Below are positions 10,197 through 54,379 of a stretch of 64,000 bases of DNA, piece by piece (position 1 is the first letter of the stretch; the number at the start of each line of letters is the position of its first letter). The notes under the pieces were generated by a model that was given only the letters and a program-made list of their open reading frames with translations, searched no databases and was not told the DNA's origin. Made by a program: the position numbers and the translations under genes. Source of the DNA: Verrucomicrobiia bacterium (lineage in GTDB: Bacteria; Verrucomicrobiota; Verrucomicrobiia; Limisphaerales; UBA1100); contig JAAZZB010000006.1 in NCBI GenBank assembly GCA_014239365.1, forward strand, positions 93,040 through 157,039, given 5' to 3'.

Positions 10197-11093
10197 ACCC
10201 CCCTTCCACCCCAGCCAACTCTTAAGCGTAACAATATCTTTCCGGATCGCTGCCACGTGTTGCGGAATCAGCTTGGGATCGCGGTGGTTCAAATATTCTT
10301 CGTGCAAATTGATGGGGCCGGTGAAACCGCTGGCAATGAGTTGGCGCGGGTATTTTTTGTCCACGATGCCTTCGGCGAGCGAGCAGTTTTTGCGGTTGTT
10401 ATTTTCCCAACGGAAACTTTTTACGTACAACGCGCCGATGCGCGGACGCAGCAGATTCGCATTCAATGGCCACGCGCGCATCCCTTCGGCTTTGGCGTGG
10501 CTGAGATCGAACCCCACCGAAACGTGCGCGGGATCGTGCGCTTTGAAAAGGTCGTGCAAATCCCACAAAGGCGCACCGACGTAGTTGCTGCCGGAATGGT
10601 TTTGGTAAATCGCTTGGATTCCCAATTCTTTATTGAGCGCCACGAGGTTTTTTAGAATGGGCCGGAACTCGTCGAGTTGTTTTACAACAGATCGTTTGAG
10701 ATCATATTTGTAATAACCCATTCGATAACGCTTCACGCCGAGCTTTGCAGCCACGCGAAGTTGCTGCACGTTGAGTTTGTCATCGGCGTTGTTAATGCCC
10801 GAGGCCATGATGGTGAGCTCGAGCTTTCGCTTGCGAAGGGCCTCCACCATTTTGGGTAATTCATCGGGCACTTGCTCGGGCGTGATGTGGCCGCCGGGGC
10901 GGATGGTGCCCTCAATGCCATCAAAGCCCAGCTCGGCAATGAGGTCGGCCAAGTCATCATAGCTCAATGATTGGAAAGGCTTGGTGAACACACAAAATGG
11001 ATTGCGCCGTTTGACTCCCAGCGTTTCGGCGGCGAGCAATGGCGCGGCCACGGCGGCGCTTGTAGTGGTTGCGAGAAATTGTCGGCGTTGCAT
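10191..11093 (-). CDS. Tat-exported sugar phosphate isomerase/epimerase-like TIM-barrel protein
   Basis: A 300-residue protein. ATG 11093 begins a twin-arginine signal (MQRRQFLATTTSAAVAAPLL). The mature part has the xylose-isomerase-like/AP endonuclease family 2 TIM-barrel pattern: ELGFDGIEGTIRPGG, a central region AIYQNHSGSNYVG, VGFDLSHAKAEG with possible metal ligands, and GPINLHEEYL near the end. Exported members are widespread in PVC bacteria; the substrate is unknown, probably a sugar or inositol derivative. It is divergent from the membrane protein at 11182. Confidence 0.75.
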   Translation of the reverse strand: MQRRQFLATTTSAAVAAPLLAAETLGVKRRNPFCVFTKPFQSLSYDDLADLIAELGFDGIEGTIRPGGHITPEQVPDELPKMVEALRKRKLELTIMASGINNADDKLNVQQLRVAAKLGVKRYRMGYYKYDLKRSVVKQLDEFRPILKNLVALNKELGIQAIYQNHSGSNYVGAPLWDLHDLFKAHDPAHVSVGFDLSHAKAEGMRAWPLNANLLRPRIGALYVKSFRWENNNRKNCSLAEGIVDKKYPRQLIASGFTGPINLHEEYLNHRDPKLIPQHVAAIRKDIVTLKSWLGWKGGK

Positions 11094-11181
11094 AGGCCGA
11101 CTGTGCCGCGCGCGCGCGCGGGCGTCCATCATTTAACCTTCCGCCCGACGCATCGCCTCCGTAGGATGCCGCCGCTTTCCG

Positions 11182-12501
11182 ATGGATTCCTCCAAGGCAC
11201 TTGATCAACAAACCATCTTCCGCACGTGGCTTCCGCTCGCGGCGAGTTGGCTATTGATGGGCGCGGAGCTGCCGCTGCTCAGCGCGGTGGTGGCGCGCCT
11301 TGCCGATCCGGATATTCATTTGGCAGCGTACAGCGGCATTGTGTTTCCGCTGGCGCTGGTGATTGAGTCGCCGATTATTATGCTGCTCACCGCGTCCACC
11401 GCGCTGAGCCGCAGCATGCGCGCGTACAAAAAAATGTGGCGGATGATGACGTGGATGAGCGTAGTGCTGACAGTGCTGCACGTGGCGATCGCGTTCACGC
11501 CATTGTACGATTTCATCGCGCTGAAAATTCTCAATGCCCCGGTAGACATCATCGAGCCCGGCCGCATTGGGTTGCAAATCATGACGCCGTGGACGTGGGC
11601 CATCGCGCATCGGCGATTTAATCAGGGCGTGCTCATTCGCTTTGGTCAATCCGGCGCAGTCGGCTGGGGCACGGCGATGCGATTGGTGGCGGATGTGATT
11701 GTCCTCGCCATTGGTTTTGCGTTGTACGATGTCGCCGGCATCGTGGTGGCTACGGCGGCGGTGGCGGCGGGTGTGCTGGCGGAGGCGGCGTATATTCGCT
11801 GGAAAGTGCAGGCGGTGATCACCGGCCCATTGCGCGAAGCAAGCAACGGGAAAGGCCCGGCCATCACGCAACGCGAAGTGATTTTGTTTTATTTGCCGAT
11901 TGCCTTCGCGCCCACGATTGGGTTGCTCGGCCAGCCGATGCTCACCGGTGCGATGGGTCGGATGGATGTGCCATTGCTCACGCTGGCAGTGTGGCCCACG
12001 GTGAACAGCCTCATCTTTATGCTACGCGCCGCGGGCATCGCGTACACGGAAGTGGTGGTGGCGCTGCTCGATCGCCCCGGCGGCTTACGCCAGTTGCGGC
12101 GGTTCACCGTGTGGCTGAGCCTCGGGCTGAGTGTGCCGTTGCTGGTTTTGTGCACGACGCCGTTGATTGATATTTGGTTCGACCGCTTCATCGGACTGCG
12201 GCCGGAACTGGCCGCGCTGGGCAAATCGGCATTGTGGTTTGCGGTGTTGATGCCGCCGGTTACTGCGTGGGGATGTTATTTTGAGGGCTTACTCATCCAC
12301 CACAAACGCAGCGCGCCGGTGACTGAAGCGGTGGTGTTTTTTATTGTCACGCTGTTTGGCTTTCTGTTTTTTGCCGTGCAAACCCAAAGCATGCCGGGCC
12401 TGAACGCGGCCGTGTGCGCGATGACGCTCGGCGGCGTGGTGCAAATGCTATGGCTCTGGCGACGCAGCCACGGCATCGCCCTCGAATATTTGGAGAAATA
12501 A
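11182..12501 (+). CDS. Polytopic membrane protein, MOP-flippase/ANKH-like
   Basis: A 439-residue integral membrane protein with about 12 hydrophobic segments. The opening (WLPLAASWLLMGAELPLLSA, then YSGIVFPLALVIESPIIMLL) and a second related half (FYLPIAFAPTIGLLGQPML) suggest the two-bundle architecture of the multidrug/oligosaccharidyl-lipid/polysaccharide (MOP) superfamily. The text is closest to what I remember of ANKH-like (progressive ankylosis) bacterial homologues, but this is recognition by eye. A transport role is likely; the substrate cannot be inferred. ATG 11182 is preceded by a purine-rich stretch. It is divergent from the exported TIM-barrel gene. Confidence 0.6.
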   Translation: MDSSKALDQQTIFRTWLPLAASWLLMGAELPLLSAVVARLADPDIHLAAYSGIVFPLALVIESPIIMLLTASTALSRSMRAYKKMWRMMTWMSVVLTVLHVAIAFTPLYDFIALKILNAPVDIIEPGRIGLQIMTPWTWAIAHRRFNQGVLIRFGQSGAVGWGTAMRLVADVIVLAIGFALYDVAGIVVATAAVAAGVLAEAAYIRWKVQAVITGPLREASNGKGPAITQREVILFYLPIAFAPTIGLLGQPMLTGAMGRMDVPLLTLAVWPTVNSLIFMLRAAGIAYTEVVVALLDRPGGLRQLRRFTVWLSLGLSVPLLVLCTTPLIDIWFDRFIGLRPELAALGKSALWFAVLMPPVTAWGCYFEGLLIHHKRSAPVTEAVVFFIVTLFGFLFFAVQTQSMPGLNAAVCAMTLGGVVQMLWLWRRSHGIALEYLEK

Positions 12502-12596: not shown

Positions 12597-13148
12597 ATGA
12601 ACGAGCCGAACGCCGGAGAACAACATCGGATTCACGTGCAACAATTGTTCGTGAAACATCAGGGCGTGCTCAAGGGGTACGTGCTAGGGTTGGTGCCGGA
12701 ATTTGCTTCGGCGGAGGATGTGCTGCAGGAAGTTTTTTTGACGGTGACGGCCAAGGCGGATCAGTTTGAAGAAGGCAGCAACTTCGTCGCGTGGGCGCGC
12801 AGCATTGCGCGGTTTAAGGTGATGGAACACTGGCGCGCGCGACGGGGCGAACCGCAGGCGCTCAGCAACGAAGTGCTCGAATCGCTGGCGGCTTCCGCGC
12901 CGGATGAGGTGCCGGAAGAACAAAGTGAACGCGAGCGGGCGCTCAAAGGCTGCCTCGCACAACTCTCGCCCACGGTGCGCGAGTTGGTGGAGCTAAGATA
13001 CGCGCAGGAACATAAGCCCGCCGAGATTGCGCGCATCAAAAACTGGACGCCCGAGGCGGTGTACGTCGCCCTCTCCCGCGCGCGCGCGGCATTGCGGGTG
13101 TGTTTGCAAAAACAGTTGGCGCTATCCGGCAAGGGGGAAGGGATTTGA
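12597..13148 (+). CDS. ECF-type RNA polymerase sigma factor (planctomycete/verrucomicrobial subfamily)
   Basis: A 183-residue protein. Region 2 is at about 12-75 (FASAEDVLQEVFLTVTAKA, then FVAWARSIARFKVMEHWRAR) and region 4 at about 115-165 (LAQLSPTVRELVELRYAQ, KPAEIARIKNWTPEAVYVAL). It redirects RNA polymerase to alternative promoters. It lies 177 bp upstream of the FecR-like gene in the same orientation, the standard arrangement for this PVC subfamily, where the downstream membrane protein is presumed to be an anti-sigma or sensor. No separate zinc-finger anti-sigma gene is present. Confidence 0.85.
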   Translation: MNEPNAGEQHRIHVQQLFVKHQGVLKGYVLGLVPEFASAEDVLQEVFLTVTAKADQFEEGSNFVAWARSIARFKVMEHWRARRGEPQALSNEVLESLAASAPDEVPEEQSERERALKGCLAQLSPTVRELVELRYAQEHKPAEIARIKNWTPEAVYVALSRARAALRVCLQKQLALSGKGEGI

Positions 13149-13325
13149 TTTGATCGCGGCTAAAATTTTTGGCGAAGGGAATGGTTTTCCCGCGCCACAA
13201 CAAATGTCCCTTGGGACTGGTTGGGTACAGACAGCACGGCGGTTTCCTGCCGCGTTTGGATCGGGGCTCCGCCCGGTGCAGCGCGGTGGGAGCCGTTCGT
13301 GCAACCCATTAAATCTGGAGACTGA

Positions 13326-14765
13326 ATGATGGAAGATAAACGACTCGCCCGTCTATTGGACGGGCACTTTGACGGCACACTAAAATCCGCCGACCGGCTG
13401 GAACTCGAAACGCTGCTGCGCGAAAGCGAGCAAGCCCGCGCCGAGTACTGGGCGCACGCCCAATTGCACAGCGATCTGCACGGCGCGCTGCGTCTGCCCG
13501 CTGCTGCGCCGGAGCCGCGCCCCACGCCAATGCAGCGTTGGCGGCATCTTATGCCCCGCCCCGCCCGTCGCATTCTTGCCCACGCCGCCGTGGTGGCCGC
13601 GTGCCTCGCCTTCGTTTGGTGGGCCCGCCAGCCGACTGCACCAGCACAATCGGAGCCGGTTTATGTCGCCGTCATCGGCCATCTCAATTCAGTTAAGAGC
13701 CTGCAAAATTTCCAACCCGGCCAAGCCATTGCCACCGGTGAACTGGAAATAAAAAATGGCCTGTTGGAATTGAAATTTTTCAACGCCGCCACCGTCACGC
13801 TGCAAGGCCCCGCGCGACTGGAGCTGCGCTCAATGGATCGGCTGGTGCTGCACCACGGTCGCCTCGCCGCGCGTGTGCCGGAAACGGCAATCGGGTTCAC
13901 TGTCGAAACACCCGCCGGCAAAATCATCGACCTCGGCACCGAGTTTGGCGTCCACGTCCGCGACGATGGCACGATGGAAACGCACGTGTTCGAAGGCGAA
14001 GTGGATGTGGCCTTGCCGCGTCAGTCCACGCACCGACTCACCGCCGGCACCGCACTCAATGTTTCCACCGAAGGCACCGCGCAGGAAGCCCCCGCCAATC
14101 CCGCGCAATTCCCGCGCTCCGTAACGCAATTGGATCAACTCCTGCTCAATCCCGGTTTCGAGCCGGGCACGCCTGTTTATAGTTATGGCATCCCGCACGC
14201 GCCCGGCCGATGGAGCGGCGATCTCGCCGTCATCACCGGCCCCGAGATGGGCATCCAACCCAAGACCGGCAAAGGAATGCTGCGCTTCGATCGCTCCATC
14301 CATTTGCTCACCGAAGAGGACACCGAAGAATCCCACGCCGCCAGCGAGCAATGGCAAATCATTGACCTCCGCCCCCTCAAAGCCAACGCGCCGCGCGCCG
14401 CCTTCACCGCCACCGCCCGCGCATACTTCAATCGCATCGACGCCGGAGCCTCCACCGACACCCGTTTTGAAATCGGCCTCTACGCCTACGCCGGCACCCC
14501 CACCGATGCCCATGCGCATTGGAAAAATCACAGCCGCCGCCTTGCCGGCCATTTCAGCGGCATCAACACCGATGCCAACCCCGCCACCTGGCAGCCCGCC
14601 GAAGCGCGCCTCACCATCCCCGCCGAAGCCGATTTCATTCTACTGCGCCTCTACGCCGTGGAAGATATCGCCGATGAACACCCCCAACAAACCGAATTCG
14701 CCGGCCACTACGCCGACGCCGTCCAACTCACCCTCCAACGCGCCCCCCTCCCCGCCACGCGCTAA
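13326..14765 (+). CDS. FecR-like membrane protein with C-terminal jelly-roll-like region
   Basis: A 479-residue protein. A cytoplasmic N-terminus (LARLLDGHFDGTL, ELETLLRESEQARAEY) is followed by one transmembrane segment (ILAHAAVVAACLAFVWWA). A periplasmic FecR domain contains VTLQGPARLELRS, HHGRLAARVPETAIGFTV and the diagnostic IIDLGTEFGVHV. The C-terminal 220 residues (LLLNPGFEPGTP onward) look like a beta-sandwich carbohydrate-binding or PEP-CTERM-type domain. It pairs with the sigma factor upstream and probably links an envelope signal to it. Two in-frame ATGs at 13326 and 13329 are both possible. Confidence 0.8.
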   Translation: MMEDKRLARLLDGHFDGTLKSADRLELETLLRESEQARAEYWAHAQLHSDLHGALRLPAAAPEPRPTPMQRWRHLMPRPARRILAHAAVVAACLAFVWWARQPTAPAQSEPVYVAVIGHLNSVKSLQNFQPGQAIATGELEIKNGLLELKFFNAATVTLQGPARLELRSMDRLVLHHGRLAARVPETAIGFTVETPAGKIIDLGTEFGVHVRDDGTMETHVFEGEVDVALPRQSTHRLTAGTALNVSTEGTAQEAPANPAQFPRSVTQLDQLLLNPGFEPGTPVYSYGIPHAPGRWSGDLAVITGPEMGIQPKTGKGMLRFDRSIHLLTEEDTEESHAASEQWQIIDLRPLKANAPRAAFTATARAYFNRIDAGASTDTRFEIGLYAYAGTPTDAHAHWKNHSRRLAGHFSGINTDANPATWQPAEARLTIPAEADFILLRLYAVEDIADEHPQQTEFAGHYADAVQLTLQRAPLPATR

Positions 14766-14791
14766 ATGGAAAAGTAAAATCAGCAATCATT

Positions 14792-14818
14792 GTAGCGGCG
14801 CTCAATGACCGCCGCTAC
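14792..14818. terminator. Hairpin between convergent FecR-like and dinB genes
   Basis: Perfect 9-bp arms GTAGCGGCG/CGCCGCTAC surround a 9-nt loop. It lies just after the FecR-like stop and overlaps the last codons of the Y-family polymerase gene. The location between convergent genes suggests a bidirectional terminator, although no clear T-run follows; it may instead be another repeat copy. Confidence 0.45.
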
Positions 14819-16139
14819 GGTCCACGCCCTCGCGATGGTGCTTGCTCAGCCGCTCGAGTTTTTCACCCCATAACTTCTGCGCCATCTCGCGGGCGGGGAC
14901 GAACGGGCATTTGGGCTTCGGATTTGCGTGTGTGACATCCTGATGACGCAGCGCGTATTGCGCGCCGGTGAGCACAGCGTCGCTGCCCCATTGGCTTTCG
15001 AGGTGCTGCATCGCGGCATCCAACGCACCCCAGCGTTCGGCATCGGTGGTGCCCCACAGCGTCGGCTGCGTGTCCAGTGGTTTGAGGTTGCAAAAACAAA
15101 TCCGAATCTGCCGCACGGGCTGCACGTGGCCGGCCATCGTTTCATCAAACAATTCCTCGAGCACGGTGTTGATCGTGGAATTCAGAAACTGCGGATGATC
15201 AAAGCGATGCCCCGCGCCGCTTTCCGAAAAATCCGTGAAGCGAATGGCCAAACTCATCTCGCGCGCCTGCAACCCTTCGCGCCGCAGTTGGCCGATCAGC
15301 CGCGTGCTTTCGCTGAGCGCGAAGATCAGCGCCGCCTCATAATCCGGCTCGTCGAAGGGCAGCGTGGTGCTGCTGGAAATCGTCGTGCGCGCTTTCACCT
15401 CCAACAACAGCGGCTCGTTCCAATGCCCGTTGGCGAAGAGCCAAAGTTGCTGGCCCCAAATGCCGAACTTTTGTTTCAGCATCGTCGAGGGCAACCGCGC
15501 CACATCGCCAAACGTCCGCGCGCCCAGCACCGCCAGCGAACGCTCGCGCCGCTTGCCCACGCCCGCCAATTCGCTGACGTGTCGTTCGGCCAAAAATTCT
15601 TTTTCGCAATCCGGCGGCACCTCCACAAACCCCGGCTTCGCCGCGCTCGTCGCCAGCTTTGCCATCCACGTGCTGCGCCCGAGGCCCGCGGACACCGGCA
15701 GCCGCAGCTCATCCTGAATCCGCGCGCGCAAGCCATTCACATAATCCGCCGCCGTCGCCACGGTGGTCTCGCGCCAGACGTGCGTGCCCATCGCCGTCAA
15801 ATCCAGAAACCCCTCGTCGATGGACATCGGCACCAACGTCGGCGAGTAATCCTCCATGATCTGAAACATCGCCTTCGAAAGCCGCCGATACTCATCATAC
15901 TGCGGCCGCGCCAGCACCCCGTGCGGACACACCCGCTTTGCCTCAAAACACGCCATCCCCGTGTGAATCCCAAACCGCTTCGCCTGACGATTGGCGGCAA
16001 TCACAATCCCATCCCCACGCCGCCCGCCGCCCACCCACACCGGCCGCCCCGACAACGAGGCATCCAGCGCCACCTCGCAACTAGCAAAAAAGGTGTCGCC
16101 ATCCACATGCAAAATTCGACTGGGCTGCCGGGTAATCAT
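14802..16139 (-). CDS. dinB: Y-family DNA polymerase (Pol IV/DinB-like)
   Basis: A 445-residue protein from ATG 16139, giving the canonical start ITRQPSRILHVDGDTFFASC with the first catalytic Asp. The second active-site motif SIDEGFLDLT supplies the Asp-Glu pair. A helix-hairpin-helix region (VSELAGVGKRRERSLAVLG) and a little-finger domain (ISSSTTLPFDEPDYEAALIF) follow. The enzyme performs translesion synthesis opposite damaged bases. The C-terminal extension (residues about 360-445, with RHQDVTHANPKPKCPF) is longer than in typical E. coli Pol IV and may hold a clamp- or partner-binding motif. No lexA or dnaE2 neighbour was seen. Confidence 0.88.
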   Translation of the reverse strand: MITRQPSRILHVDGDTFFASCEVALDASLSGRPVWVGGGRRGDGIVIAANRQAKRFGIHTGMACFEAKRVCPHGVLARPQYDEYRRLSKAMFQIMEDYSPTLVPMSIDEGFLDLTAMGTHVWRETTVATAADYVNGLRARIQDELRLPVSAGLGRSTWMAKLATSAAKPGFVEVPPDCEKEFLAERHVSELAGVGKRRERSLAVLGARTFGDVARLPSTMLKQKFGIWGQQLWLFANGHWNEPLLLEVKARTTISSSTTLPFDEPDYEAALIFALSESTRLIGQLRREGLQAREMSLAIRFTDFSESGAGHRFDHPQFLNSTINTVLEELFDETMAGHVQPVRQIRICFCNLKPLDTQPTLWGTTDAERWGALDAAMQHLESQWGSDAVLTGAQYALRHQDVTHANPKPKCPFVPAREMAQKLWGEKLERLSKHHREGVDRSGGH

Positions 16140-16517: not shown

Positions 16518-16970
16518 GTGAAACCATTTCGACTTACTTGGATTTTGATGGCGGCGGTAATTTGCAACGCAACGGCGGACGACATTCGTGGCGAGGTGGA
16601 GTTCAGCATCAACGCGAGGGCAAAGACGACCAAAGCGGGGACGCCCTTTGCATTAGAGCTGGAATACAACATCGCCCCCGGCTGGCACATCGGTCCGCAA
16701 ACATCGAAAGTCACCATCCCCACTGAGCTGGAGTGGACGCTGCCCGAGGGGGTGAAGCTGGTGAAAGTGGAATGGCCGGAGCTGAATTATTTTGGCAACC
16801 CGCCCGGCTTTCAAGGCAAAGTGATTCTCCACGCCAAACTGCAAGCGGCGAAGGACTTAAAGCCCGGCGCGAAATTAACCATCGGCGTCCGTTCATCGTG
16901 GCAAGTGTGCAAAGGCATTTGTAAACTGGGCGAGGCGACGAAGTTGGTGAAGGTGACGGTTGCAAAATAA
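16518..16970 (+). CDS. Exported DsbD N-terminal (DsbD-alpha)-like redox protein
   Basis: A 150-residue protein with GTG start 16518 and a signal peptide (MKPFRLTWILMAAVICNATA). The mature part is an Ig-like fold of the DsbD alpha-domain type: LELEYNIAPGWHIGPQTSKV, ELEWTLPEGVKLVKVEW and the C-terminal motif WQVCKGICKLGEA with the CxxxC pair near the position used for disulfide exchange in DsbD-alpha. Full DsbD carries electrons from cytoplasmic thioredoxin to the periplasm, but here the membrane and thioredoxin-like domains are missing. It is 16 bp upstream of the FG-GAP gene with the in-frame UGA, so the two are probably co-transcribed, and a thiol or selenol redox partnership is a reasonable inference. 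Confidence 0.75.
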   Translation: MKPFRLTWILMAAVICNATADDIRGEVEFSINARAKTTKAGTPFALELEYNIAPGWHIGPQTSKVTIPTELEWTLPEGVKLVKVEWPELNYFGNPPGFQGKVILHAKLQAAKDLKPGAKLTIGVRSSWQVCKGICKLGEATKLVKVTVAK

Positions 16971-16986
16971 AACACATCAAAAATTT

Positions 16987-18192
16987 ATGAAAACACAAAC
17001 TCTCTTCAAAACCTTCGCAACGCTCACCGCCCTCGGCACGGCCGCTGCCGCGTACGCGGTGGATTTCGCACCGCCGCTAATGATGCAGGCCAACGGCCAA
17101 CCCATCAGCACCGAATCCCCCGGCTACGCCGCGCCGTGTTGGGCGGATGTGGATGGCGACGGCAAAAAAGATTTGCTCGTCGGCCAGTTTGCCGGCGGAA
17201 AAATTCAGGTGTTCAAAAACACCGGTGACAACAAACTCGCCGCCGGCCAATGGCTGCAGGCCGACGGCAAAACCGCTAAAGTCCCCGGCGTATGGTGATG
17301 CACCAGCTCGACTCCACAGTTTGTGGATCTCAATAACGACGGACACCCCGACATTCTTTCCGGTTCTTACTCGTGGAATGAGCGGGGAATGGCCGGCATT
17401 TTCCAAGTGCTCTGGGGCCAACCCGGCGGTGGTTTCAAGCAACCCACCCCACTGCAAGGCACCGACGGCAAGCCGCTGATTATTCTGCCAGACGATAAAA
17501 AAACCCCCACCCTCGCCCGCATCTGCACCCGGCCCACCGCTGCGGATTGGGATGGCGACGGCCACATCGACCTCGTGGTCGGCAACTTCGGCGGCAGCTT
17601 TTATCTCTTCAAAGGCGAAGGCAAAGGCAAGTTCGCGCCCAAAGCCACAAAACTCACTTCCGGCGGCAAAGCCCTTGAAGTCCGACACCACAGTGACCCC
17701 TTCGTCATCGACTGGGATGCCGATGGCGACCTCGATCTCCTTAGCGGAGCATCCGGCGGCGGCGTGCACTGGGCCGAAAACACCGCCGGCAAAGGCAAAG
17801 CCCCGACGCTCAAACCGTTCAAAGCCATCATCGCCTCCGGCCCCAAACGCGAATACGGCGCGATGCTTAAAGAAGCCGACCTCGACGGCCCCGGCAGCGA
17901 CACCCGCATTTGGGTGGACGACATCAACGGCGACGGCAAGCTCGACCTCCTTGTTGGCGACTCCGTGCAACTCGTTTCCCCAGCCAAAGGCTTGACCGAA
18001 AAAGAGTACCACAAACAAAAAGCCGCGTGGAAAGTTGAGAAAGACAAATGCATCGCAATACTCAGCAATCGGAAATCGAAAAAAGCTGAGAAACGCGCCG
18101 CCGGCAAAAAGATGAACAATCTACACAACCAACGCAAAGATTTCGAAATCACCAAAAGCACCGGCTACGTGTGGCTCTATTTGCAGAAGTAA
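16987..18192 (+). CDS. FG-GAP/VCBS protein with in-frame UGA, candidate selenoprotein (copy 1)
   Basis: Read through the TGA at 17296-17298, the frame is continuous from ATG 16987 to TAA 18190-18192 (401 residues including residue 104 as Sec). It has a signal peptide (MKTQTLFKTFATLTALGTA) and repeated calcium-binding-type FG-GAP motifs (DVDGDGKKDLLVG, DLNNDGHPDILSG, DWDGDGHIDLVVG, DWDADGDLDLLSG, DINGDGKLDLLVG) spread on both sides of the TGA. The two halves are therefore one propeller. Around the TGA the protein reads GVW-U-CTSSTPQFVD. The paralogue at 52788 has a TGA at the same place. If UGA were a plain stop, only a 103-residue stub would be made. Sec insertion is inferred from the conserved hairpin; no Sec machinery genes lie in this window. 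Confidence 0.78.
17296..17327 (+). promoter_or_regulatory. Candidate bacterial SECIS element (copy 1)
   Basis: TGA 17296-17298 is followed by TGC (Cys). After 19 nt comes a 5-nt loop AGTTT (17318-17322) closed by TCCAC/GTGGA (17313-17317/17323-17327). The stem can be lengthened by two pairs if C17312 is bulged. Bacterial SECIS hairpins are known to have a short apical loop with a G in its first two bases, about 16-37 nt after the UGA; this one fits. Confidence 0.65.
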
Positions 18193-51865: not shown

Positions 51866-52678
51866 CTATTTTTGCTTCGCTTCAATCCGTTTGATGAACC
51901 GCAGCAGCAACCCGTGCGCGGGGTTGGCAATTTGACCGTGGTTGTGGCCGTCGAGTTCCATAATTTTTGTATCGGGATGGCCGACGACTTGCATCATGCG
52001 CCAGAGGTAAGCGTTCTCTTCGTAGCGGCCGAGGAGTTCGAGTTTGCGATCGCCGGTAATGAGTAACATTGGCGGCGCATCCTTGCGTACATGAAAGAGC
52101 GGCGCCATGTTGTCGATCACCGGCTGCTTCTCATCAATGCCGCGTTCTTTGCGCACGGTGAAATGCGTGATGGTGTGGCCGCTAAACGGGATAAGCCCGG
52201 CGATGGCGTTGGCGTCGATTTGGTGCGCGGCGAGCCAGCGTTTGTCCAGCCCCACCATACTGGTGAGGTAACCACCGGCCGAATGGCCGCTCACGTAAAT
52301 GCGCTTGGCGGAGCCGCCGTATGTTTCAATGTTGCGAACCGTCCACGCCACTGCGGCGGCGGCGTCCTCGATGTACGCGGGCGATTTCACTTTTGGATGC
52401 AGCCGGTAATTCACCGCCACCACCGCAATGCCTTTTCCTTTCAACGCCTCGGGCACCGTTCGGGTGCCGGCCTTCAATCCGCCGCCATGAAACCACACGA
52501 CCGTTGGGAAATCTTTTTTGTGTTTTGGATGGTACACATCCAGCCGACACCGCTCGCGCATATACGCGGTCAGCTTGCCATTGCGATAGAGAATGTCAGC
52601 GGTGGTTTTATAAACCGGTTGCGCAAAAGCCGACGGCATAAGCACGAGCACTGCGACGAGGAACAGAATTTTTCGCAT
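51866..52678 (-). CDS. Exported alpha/beta hydrolase (esterase/lipase-like)
   Basis: A 270-residue protein from ATG 52678 with a signal peptide (MRKILFLVAVLVLMPSAFA). The oxyanion motif HGGG (VVWFHGGGLKAGT), nucleophile elbow GHSAGG and late Asp/His (LLITGDRKLE; ELDGHNHGQI) give a complete hormone-sensitive-lipase/BD-FAE-like catalytic triad. It probably cleaves acyl or feruloyl esters from polysaccharides outside the cytoplasm. Single gene, convergent with the phosphonate cluster. Confidence 0.88.
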   Translation of the reverse strand: MRKILFLVAVLVLMPSAFAQPVYKTTADILYRNGKLTAYMRERCRLDVYHPKHKKDFPTVVWFHGGGLKAGTRTVPEALKGKGIAVVAVNYRLHPKVKSPAYIEDAAAAVAWTVRNIETYGGSAKRIYVSGHSAGGYLTSMVGLDKRWLAAHQIDANAIAGLIPFSGHTITHFTVRKERGIDEKQPVIDNMAPLFHVRKDAPPMLLITGDRKLELLGRYEENAYLWRMMQVVGHPDTKIMELDGHNHGQIANPAHGLLLRFIKRIEAKQK

Positions 52679-52787
52679 AGGCCAAGGGTAACGAAACCGC
52701 CGCACGGAGACAGCCTTTTATGCCAAGCATTTGCGTTGACGACTTACGTTGATTGCTCCAGAATTGGCGCGTTAATCGAAACGAATT

Positions 52788-54119
52788 ATGAAACACAATT
52801 CTTGGATGAATGGTTTGAGTGTGGCGGTGGTTTGCCTCGCCACTTCGCAAACGGCGATGGCTCAGCGTGGGGCGAACATTCCGGTGGATGCGAATTACAA
52901 ATTCGCACCGGGGGTGCGGTTGTTGAGCGGCGGCAAGCCGATTGATGTGACGACCGGCCACGCGGCACCGTATATTTACGATTTTAACAAGGACGGCAAG
53001 CGCGATCTTTTGGTGGGCGAGTTCGGCTCGGGCAGTTACAAGGGCGAGAAGACGACGGACAACGGGCCGCTGGCGAACGCGCGCCTGCGGGTTTATCTGA
53101 ACACGGGCACGAATCTCAAGCCGATGTACGACGGCTTCAAATATCTTCAGGCCGACGGCGAAAATGCGTCGGTCCCAAGTACGTGATGCAGCACCTTCTG
53201 TCCACAGTTTGTGGACTTTGACGCGGACGGCACGGACGACCTCATCACCGGCTCCATTTACGAGGACATTTTTTTGTTCCGCGGATTGGGCGGCGGCAAG
53301 TTCGCCAAGCGCGAGCTGTTGCGTGATGTGGATGGCAAACCACTCAAGGGCGGCTACTGCGTCACCACCGAGCTGCTGGATATGGATGCCGATGGCGACC
53401 TTGATTTGATGTGCGGCAATCGCACCGAAGAAGTGCGGTGGTTCAAAAATGTGGGCACGCGCAAGGCGCCCCGATACGAAGCCAAAAGCCGCGCACTACC
53501 GATGGCCCCGAACGCCGGGCGCATCAGCGGCAGCAACACAGAATTTGCCGATTGGGATGGCGATGGCAAACGCGATCTCATCGTCGGCTCCGAATGGGGT
53601 GAAGTGACGTGGTACCGCAACACCGGCGCGGACAATCAACCCCGATTTGCCGCCGGTAAAAAACTTTTTGCCCGCTCCGGTTGGGAGGAATTAAAGGAAG
53701 GTGACGTGCCAACAAAACACGGTTCACGCGTAAAAGTACACGCGTACGATTACGACCTCGACGGACGATTGGATATTTTGCTCGGCGACGTGAAATCCAC
53801 CACCTTTCAAAGCCGCCCGCCCCTCAGCAAAAAAGAAAAGAAGCTAAAGAAAAAACTCGAAGCCGAATTAGAACAAATACGGAGCCGCAGTTACAAAAAA
53901 ATCAACGAGCTAAACCAGCAATACTGGAAAGCCAAAGAAGCCGGACGGGACAAAGAAGCCGCCGAATTCCGCGCCGCTCAAGGTAAAATGCGCGAACCCC
54001 TCAACGCCATCTACGCCCAACTCCGCCCCCTCCGCACCACCGGCCACAAAACCCACGGCTGGGTCTGGTTCTACCGCCAACTCCCCAAGCCCCCCGTTGT
54101 TCTCAAAAAAACCGAATAG
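52788..54119 (+). CDS. FG-GAP/VCBS protein with in-frame UGA, candidate selenoprotein (copy 2)
   Basis: Read through TGA 53184-53186, one frame runs from ATG 52788 to TAG 54117-54119 (443 residues, residue 133 as Sec). Signal peptide near MNGLSVAVVCLATSQTAMA. FG-GAP motifs occur on both sides (DFNKDGKRDLLVG; DFDADGTDDLITG; DMDADGDLDLMCG; DWDGDGKRDLIVG; DYDLDGRLDILLG), so the TGA interrupts one propeller. Local sequence: ASVPST-U-CSTFCPQFVD, aligning with GVW-U-CTSSTPQFVD in the copy at 16987. A lysine-rich coiled segment (KKEKKLKKKLEAELEQI) and a terminal HGWVWFYRQL follow, similar to the GYVWLYLQ end of copy 1. Role unknown; an extracellular redox function is inferred. Confidence 0.78.
53184..53216 (+). 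promoter_or_regulatory. Candidate bacterial SECIS element (copy 2)
   Basis: TGA 53184-53186, Cys codon TGC next, then exactly 19 nt to a 5-nt loop AGTTT (53206-53210) closed by a perfect 6-bp stem GTCCAC/GTGGAC. The loop sequence and the distance are identical to the copy at 17296-17327, and the TCCAC/GTGGA core of the stem is shared, although surrounding codons differ. Confidence 0.68.
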
Positions 54120-54172: not shown

Positions 54173-54379
54173 ATGGAATTGGTATTTAGCGTGACTCAGG
54201 AAACCGATGGCGGCTACGTAGCCGAATGCCTCTCCCACGATATTTTTACGCAGGGCGATGACTGGGGGCAACTGCGCGGAAACGTCCGTGAAGCGGTGGA
54301 TGCATTCTTCTTCGACCAACCCAAACCGGATTCCATTCGGCTGCACCTCGTACGCGACGAAGTATTGTCGGCCCAATGA
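54173..54379 (+). CDS. hicB: HicB-family antitoxin-like protein
   Basis: A 68-residue protein from ATG 54173: MELVFSVTQETDGGYVAECL, then HDIFTQGDDWGQLRGNVREA and VDAFFFDQPKPDSIRLHLVR. This is a short HicB-type fold. It overlaps the hicA-like remnant by ATGA, the expected hicBA order. Its leader (54119-54172) resembles that of the third HicB-like gene at 54688. Confidence 0.8.
   Translation: MELVFSVTQETDGGYVAECLSHDIFTQGDDWGQLRGNVREAVDAFFFDQPKPDSIRLHLVRDEVLSAQ

What the first reader, a model, noticed from the sequence alone, without database searches (positions are those of the whole stretch)
52788..54119. Second paralogue, 36 kb away, with UGA at the homologous position and the same hairpin
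The TGA at 53184-53186 aligns with that of the first gene (ST-U-CSTFCPQFVD versus VW-U-CTSSTPQFVD). The hairpin core TCCACAGTTTGTGGA is identical in DNA, and the 19-nt spacing is identical, while surrounding codons have diverged. Codons CCA-CAG-TTT-GTG are held constant, unlike the C/G-ending codons around them, which suggests selection on RNA structure. Two independent nonsense mutations at one place are unlikely.
Basis: partly seen in the sequence, partly recalled or inferred. Interest (0 to 1): 0.93.

Follow-up and report, generated by a model that had tools for sequence, protein, structure and literature searches.

The report
New beta-propeller selenoprotein family
Two genes in this bacterial genome carry an in-frame UGA followed by a hairpin whose pairing is kept by matching base changes in dozens of relatives, so the UGA is very likely read as the rare amino acid selenocysteine, in a family of proteins with a predicted propeller fold that are predicted to be exported, would be redox-active, and are mostly cut short in databases.

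Summary
ORF 52788-54119 has one in-frame UGA (53184-53186), as does its old paralogue 16987-18192. The genome holds tRNA-Sec (UCA), selD, selA and selB in one cluster. A protein search of 246 Planctomycetota genomes with a cysteine homologue gave 52 matches: 49 with UGA at the homologous codon, 3 with Cys. In all 49, Cys follows and a hairpin comes at fixed spacing. Its arms covary (A-U 36, G-C 12, G-U 1 at one pair); the 3 Cys genes have lost it. It fits the published bacterial SECIS model. A capped pattern scan found 114 family genes, mostly Planctomycetota. Of the 120 best database relatives, 115 are pieces lacking the UGA region. The protein is a predicted five-bladed FG-GAP propeller with a vicinal Sec-Cys. 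Some relatives are fused to DsbD_N, three also to a peroxiredoxin with a second UGA at its catalytic position, which points to redox work in the cell envelope. None of 119 listed prokaryotic selenoprotein families matches. Selenium incorporation and activity are untested.

The parts
52788..54119 (+). Paralogue 2: ORF of 443 aa read through one UGA; FG-GAP repeats; predicted five-bladed propeller
   Evidence: PF13517 1.7e-21; pLDDT 90.6, pTM 0.86
52788..52865 (+). Likely signal peptide (MKHNSWMNGLSVAVVCLATSQTAMAQ), judged by eye
   Evidence: helix 10-22 in the model; no signal-peptide program was run
53184..53186 (+). In-frame UGA, predicted selenocysteine (residue 133)
53187..53189 (+). Cys codon next to the UGA (vicinal Sec-Cys pair); TGC/TGT in 49 of 49 UGA relatives found by protein similarity
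53201..53215 (+). Predicted bacterial SECIS core: arms 53201-53205 and 53211-53215, loop AGUUU 53206-53210
53829..54032 (+). Helical hairpin inserted in the last blade (residues 348-415)
16987..18192 (+). Paralogue 1: 401 aa read through one UGA; FG-GAP repeats
   Evidence: PF13517 5.3e-28
17296..17298 (+). In-frame UGA of paralogue 1
17313..17327 (+). Predicted SECIS core of paralogue 1, identical 15 nt
16518..16970 (+). Stand-alone DsbD N-terminal-domain gene, 16 nt before paralogue 1; the same domain is fused to some other family members
   Evidence: PF11412 37.8 bits, cut-off 25

Best explanation
The ORF 52788-54119 is very likely translated through its in-frame UGA (53184-53186) as selenocysteine, likely directed by the hairpin 53201-53215 acting as a bacterial SECIS element, to give a protein predicted to be an exported five-bladed FG-GAP beta-propeller whose adjacent Sec-Cys pair would be its redox centre. 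Shown here: the conserved UGA, compensatory changes in the hairpin, Cys homologues that have lost the hairpin, and the sel genes of the same genome. Predicted: the fold. Inferred: that SelB with Sec-tRNA(Sec) decodes this UGA and that the protein is exported. Inferred with less certainty: Sec and Cys cycle between selenol/thiol and a selenenylsulfide in the cell envelope, reduced by a DsbD N-terminal-type domain (a separate gene beside paralogue 1, a fused domain in some relatives), to pass electrons to peroxide or to an oxidised partner such as the Sec-peroxiredoxin domain fused in three relatives.
For: Recoding. (a) Search with the full-length Cys homologue P0004 in 246 Planctomycetota: 48 genomes, 52 matches at E<=1e-30, 49 with exactly one TGA; all 52 were read: 49 UGA and 3 Cys at the homologous codon; Cys follows the UGA in 49 of 49. 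(b) Stem, 51 sequences (49 + 2 window; 49 distinct rows): 98.8% of 245 cells paired, 2 pairs and 13 cells changed on both sides, covariation 0.171 against 0.088 +/- 0.011 in shuffles (0/500 as high); slid versions pair in 20.8-49.8% of cells. Cys genes: one stem pair is C-C in 3 of 3. (c) Codons in 116 distinct genes (pattern scan plus close relatives): CCA 111/116, CAG 116/116, GTG 116/116 at the site; elsewhere in the same genes CCA is 12.6% of 2525 Pro, CAG 64.8% of 1462 Gln, GTG 34.6% of 2988 Val. (d) tRNA-Sec with anticodon UCA, SelA 472.6 bits, SelB 328.6 bits, SelD 516 bits, all on one contig. Of the 112 family loci of the scan 45 were given (43 genomes), with all 5 chance loci: tRNA-Sec >=60 bits in 37 of 43 and in 1 of 5. 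(e) Four full-length database homologues with Cys-Cys at the site. (f) Published bSECIS model: 19-nt spacing and 5-nt loop in 51 of 51 as drawn, stem 5 bp in 48 and 4 bp in 3, MFE <= -7.5 in 50 of 51, core stem in the MFE fold of 48 of 51. Redox role. DsbD_N is fused C-terminally or N-terminally to, or lies beside, some family genes, incl. Bacteroidales loci and two Cys homologues (own HMM; six proteins confirmed by Pfam). Three relatives carry DsbD_N plus a peroxiredoxin domain with a second in-frame TGA at the PxxxTxxU position of Sec-peroxiredoxins (Pfam run on L111 only; motif from PMC13188914).
Against: No selenium, peptide or activity data. tRNA-Sec is missing in 6 of 43 family genomes and, at E<=1e-9, in G001, which has the UGA gene; fragmented assemblies are the likely reason, not proved. 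Within the 58 relatives, tRNA-Sec is found in 5 of 6 UGA holders and 27 of 52 others: no strong association by itself. Paralogue 2 is patchy: found with UGA in 3 of 7 genomes of the window's genus, some incomplete. Two of 51 elements (loops AAGGC, AAGGU) lack G in the first two loop positions. One covariation measure, the number of further pair types, does not differ from shuffles (3 against 3.0; 495/500), and related sequences can exceed such shuffles without structure. Codon usage alone gives a fold at least as stable in 152 and 112 of 2000 synonymous recodings of the two window sites, so the single-gene fold is weak evidence; the covariation carries the case. Rfam found nothing. No neighbour recurs widely except DsbD_N, and that in a minority of loci. 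One homologue has Glu at the Sec position (P0010).
Confidence: 0.88

Rival explanations
1. The UGA is a real stop: two separate genes, with the second started by re-initiation at the ATG overlapping the stop (TGATG) or at the GTG inside the hairpin.
For: TGATG is a stop/start overlap, and databases do start most relatives at or near this GTG: 115 of the 120 best hits are 260-299 aa pieces, many beginning VDxDGDG or MDxDGDG.
Against: The frame of the overlapping ATG is open for 150 codons or more in only 4 of 120 genes (median 17), while the UGA frame runs a median of 305 codons. By the model the stop would cut the chain just before the inner strand of blade 2. It does not explain compensatory stem changes, the Cys after UGA in 49 of 49, or Cys homologues with one continuous frame.
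Confidence: 0.03
2. UGA is reassigned or suppressed generally in these genomes (read as Cys, Trp or another residue) without selenium.
For: Cys replaces the UGA codon in 3 of 52 homologues found by protein similarity and in 4 database homologues.
Against: UGA ends 43 of 105 complete family frames; 3 of these are the second predicted Sec codon (L111, L129, L136), so it is the ordinary stop in 40 of the other 102. The element downstream is specific and lost in the 3 Cys forms. tRNA-Sec and selA/selB/selD are present.
Confidence: 0.03
3. Pseudogenes or sequencing errors.
For: A single internal stop is the usual look of a decayed gene.
Against: Same codon in independent assemblies of several phyla: 112 of 117 pattern hits are family loci, and 49 of 52 matches of a search that did not ask for a stop.
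Confidence: 0.01
4. Selenocysteine is inserted, but the Sec-Cys pair binds a metal or metalloid, or is structural, rather than passing electrons.
For: The nearest solved relatives by sequence are binding proteins (integrin alpha, PVL lectin); no third Cys is generally conserved (Cys at the blade-3 position in 29 of 69 rows).
Against: Fusion and adjacency with DsbD_N, and fusion with a peroxiredoxin with a second UGA, in some relatives.
Confidence: 0.3

Closest known systems
Bacterial selenoprotein genes with a bSECIS element (model as given in PMC13188914, passages and Table 1 seen)
   Same: In-frame UGA, small stem-loop 16-37 nt downstream with G at loop position 1-2, Cys homologues, sel genes in the genome
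   Different: None of the 119 families/subfamilies of its Table 1 is named as an FG-GAP, VCBS or propeller protein
FG-GAP / VCBS repeat propellers (PF13517, PF01839; integrin alpha, PVL lectin, CRTAC1)
   Same: DxDxDGxxD repeats above Pfam cut-offs; weak sequence matches in PDB
DsbD N-terminal domain (PF11412)
   Same: Fused to, or beside, several family members
   Different: In the window a stand-alone 150-aa gene, in relatives a fused domain, not the N-terminus of a membrane DsbD
Sec-containing peroxiredoxin (Prx, PF00578, TxxU)
   Same: L111, L129 and L136 end in a peroxiredoxin domain with UGA at the PxxxTxxU position
   Different: Fused behind the propeller and DsbD_N, giving two predicted Sec in one chain; not in the window's own genes
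TsoB, rhodanese/DsbD-fusion-like selenoprotein (NF045694)
   Same: Selenoprotein linked with a DsbD-like part (listed in PMC13188914)
   Different: Rhodanese, not a propeller; UxxxxU motif

Membership tests
Bacterial selenoprotein gene | Conserved in-frame UGA inside an otherwise open, conserved reading frame | tested here: met
   49 of 52 homologues found by protein similarity; both window genes
Bacterial selenoprotein gene | Cys homologues at the same position | tested here: met
   3 of 52 loci and 4 database proteins
Bacterial selenoprotein gene | tRNA-Sec, SelA, SelB, SelD in the genome | tested here: met
Bacterial selenoprotein gene | Selenium in the protein | not testable with these tools
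   Needs 75Se labelling or mass spectrometry
bSECIS element (model quoted in PMC13188914) | 3-9 nt apical loop, 4-16 bp stem | tested here: met
   5-nt loop; 5 bp in 48 and 4 bp in 3 of 51; 98.8% of 245 cells paired
bSECIS element (model quoted in PMC13188914) | G in the first two loop positions | tested here: met
   Both window genes and 47 of the 49 relatives; 2 have loop AAGGC or AAGGU
bSECIS element (model quoted in PMC13188914) | 16-37 nt between UGA and loop | tested here: met
   19 nt in 51 of 51
bSECIS element (model quoted in PMC13188914) | MFE <= -7.5 kcal/mol | tested here: met
   50 of 51, folding 42 nt after the UGA
FG-GAP repeat family (PF13517) | Score above Pfam cut-off | tested here: met
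   77.0 and 97.8 bits, cut-off 26.9
DsbD_N (PF11412), neighbour 16518-16970 | Score above Pfam cut-off | tested here: met
   37.8 bits, cut-off 25
Sec-peroxiredoxin (third domain of L111) | AhpC-TSA domain with PxxxTxxU | tested here: met
   111.2 bits at residues 626-748; sequence FYPKASTPGU; L129 and L136 by like sequence only
Any named selenoprotein family (NCBIfam 20.0) | Score above a curated cut-off | tested here: not met
   No match for paralogue 2; three sub-cut-off matches to unrelated models for paralogue 1

The most novel reading that the evidence does not exclude
A widespread, unrecognised class of selenoproteins built on a beta-propeller: an envelope Sec-Cys oxidoreductase or peroxidase fed by DsbD_N-type domains, which in one line has captured its own Sec-peroxiredoxin as a second Sec domain of the same chain, and whose SECIS element dictates the amino acids of the inner strand of a propeller blade, freed only when Sec is replaced by Cys.
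Probability: 0.5. Interest if true: 0.92.

Novelty: new variant of a known kind. Interest (0 to 1): 0.86.

Why it matters
Nearly one in five sampled planctomycete genomes (48 of 246) holds a relative, in 49 of 52 genes with UGA, yet databases start most of these proteins after the UGA. If read as argued, Planctomycetota and their neighbours make selenoproteins of a kind that standard annotation does not see, on a fold other than the thioredoxin-like one that PMC13188914 gives for the majority. The Sec-Cys pair, the DsbD_N link and the two-Sec peroxiredoxin fusion give a concrete redox hypothesis that can be tested in cultured planctomycetes. It also offers a natural experiment in which an RNA element constrains a protein strand: Val/Ala alternates with the Pro wobble base, and the constraint is gone in Cys homologues.

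Tried and rejected
Rfam at gathering scores: no hit in the window, so no help for or against a bSECIS. Viral contigs: 2 pattern hits, both outside FG-GAP frames, chance. Two other matches share the spacing but lack the Cys (read by eye in the listing); the pattern asked for the Phe form only, so it undercounts. Conserved neighbours: 591 neighbouring ORFs clustered; the recurrent groups reached at most 9 loci and looked like synteny of near relatives; DsbD_N was then found with an HMM made here from 13 examples. Third conserved Cys as resolving residue: only 29 of 69 rows. Paper searches for such a selenoprotein: selenoprotein+FG-GAP 2 papers, unrelated by title, selenocysteine+VCBS 0, selenocysteine+FG-GAP 0, selenoprotein+VCBS 1, unrelated by title, selenoprotein+beta-propeller+selenocysteine+bacteria 12, titles and abstract starts only, none on such a family; the library is open-licence PMC only. 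Word look-ups in PMC12013277, PMC9312934 and PMC5029168 gave no FG-GAP or planctomycete passage (FG-GAP not asked in the last). Supplementary Table S9 of PMC4807772 (selenoprotein candidates of two planctomycetes) could not be read, so a prior listing there is not excluded.

5 of its 117 stretches (L061, L077, L079, L139, L160) were dropped as chance because their frames are not FG-GAP. Four loci that repeat the window genes (L018, L045, L167, L168) were left out. The similarity set scored at most 7 candidates per genome at E<=1e-30. The model used 69 of 86 complete sequences.

Full report
What is there. The frame 52788-54119 is open for 132 codons before and 310 after one TGA at 53184-53186. 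It encodes FG-GAP repeats (PF13517, 77 bits against a cut-off of 26.9) behind a likely signal peptide (by eye). The paralogue 16987-18192 has the same anatomy with TGA at 17296-17298. The 15-mer TCCACAGTTTGTGGA occurs twice in the window, once in each gene, and its core only there in the assembly.

The genome can insert selenocysteine. G000 (3.3 Mb, 89 contigs) has tRNA-Sec with anticodon UCA at C40:9414-9505, then SelD (TIGR00476 427.6 bits, NF002098 516 bits), SelA at 10602-11903, a transglutaminase-core gene and SelB at 12969-14828.

Is the UGA conserved without being asked for? A full-length Cys homologue from the protein database (P0004) was used against 246 Planctomycetota genomes. 48 genomes gave 52 matches at E<=1e-30; 49 had exactly one TGA, 3 none. 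I fetched the 22 matches that had no locus and read all 52: 49 have UGA, 3 have Cys at the homologous codon. In 49 of 49 the next codon is TGC or TGT.

Is the hairpin under selection as RNA? In these 49, plus the two window genes, the arms (columns 18-22 with 28-32 of alignment A1) pair in 98.8% of cells. The fourth pair is A-U 36, G-C 12, G-U 1 in the 49: relatives with Ala in place of Val (GCG for GTG) carry CCG for CCA. One relative (L223) has U-A for C-G at the fifth pair. The covariation score is 0.171 against 0.088 +/- 0.011 for shuffles (0 of 500 as high), and slid structures pair in 20.8-49.8% of cells; the count of further pair types does not differ from shuffles (495 of 500), and the tool warns that related sequences can exceed shuffles. 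The three Cys genes break the third pair (C-C in 3 of 3). Cys homologues also leave the PQFVD strand freer: PQLAD, PLLVD, PQVVD, PQMAD and PRFVD occur beside PQFVD. In a larger, pattern-selected set (116 distinct genes) the Pro codon is CCA in 111 and CCG in 5, although CCA is 12.6% of Pro codons elsewhere in the same genes; CAG and GTG are fixed; the Phe codon in the loop is free. The other Pro codons, CCC and CCT, which would unpair the stem, occur in neither set of UGA genes. The element meets the bSECIS model quoted in PMC13188914 (passages): 5-nt loop, stem of 5 bp in 48 and 4 bp in 3 of 51, 19 nt from the UGA, G among the first two loop bases in 49 of 51, MFE <= -7.5 in 50 of 51. A single gene would not have shown this: 152 and 112 of 2000 synonymous recodings of the two window sites fold as stably.

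Spread and age. The pattern scan of GTDB-species contigs stopped at its limit with 117 stretches; 112 are family loci with 114 genes: by record title 75 Planctomycetota, 13 Verrucomicrobiota, 11 Bacteroidota (all one MAG), 3 Armatimonadota, 1 each Bacillota and Poribacteria, 10 without phylum. In a tree of 92 sequences the two window paralogues lie on opposite sides of a 100/100 split at the midpoint root; the Cys rows fall in four places of the drawn tree, with Sec rows as neighbours. Of the 112 family loci 45 were tested for tRNA-Sec: 60 bits or more in 37 of 43 genomes, and in 1 of 5 genomes behind chance hits. Among 58 relatives it is in 5 of 6 UGA holders and 27 of 52 others, which is no strong association by itself. 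Paralogue 2 was found in 3 of 7 genomes of the window's genus.

Why it was missed. Of the 120 best database relatives listed, 115 are 260-299 aa pieces, and most of the printed starts lie at or next to the GTG of the hairpin; names given are 'hypothetical protein', 'FG-GAP-like repeat' and 'VCBS repeat'. NCBIfam has no model. Table 1 of PMC13188914, seen whole (section 7, parts 1 and 2), lists 119 families/subfamilies and names no FG-GAP, VCBS or propeller family. The paper searches named under Tried and rejected found none.

Verdict. I put recoding as selenocysteine at about 0.95 and the redox, DsbD_N-coupled role at about 0.6. It is a new selenoprotein family using a known kind of recoding, on an unusual fold.

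Noticed in passing
G000:C40:9414-14828 (loci L001, L017, L009): sel cluster in the order tRNA-Sec, selD, selA, transglutaminase-core gene, selB. A transglut_core gene is also reported in the unusual sel operon of planctomycete P2 in PMC4807772 (passages read).
   Followed up: partly
L058, L068, L131, L151, L152, L153, L154, L159, L163: One Bacteroidales MAG (PL25a_bin.72) holds at least 11 genes of the family, two pairs in tandem, some next to DsbD_N genes.
   Followed up: partly
P0010: A full-length homologue has Glu-Cys where others have Sec-Cys or Cys-Cys.
   Followed up: no
L019:1498-3474: A close relative of paralogue 2 carries a peptidoglycan-binding domain (PF01471, 44.2 bits, residues 390-441) in the stretch that forms the helical insert in the window copy, which lacks it and the fused DsbD_N.
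   Followed up: partly
L101: A 'Bacillota' MAG record holds a copy very close to planctomycete ones, perhaps a misbinned contig.
   Followed up: no
window 54173-54376: Small ORF behind paralogue 2 that overlaps the next ATG; looks HicB-like by eye, no Pfam match.
   Followed up: partly
window 51869-52705, - strand: BD-FAE/carboxylesterase-type hydrolase gene divergent to paralogue 2.
   Followed up: no
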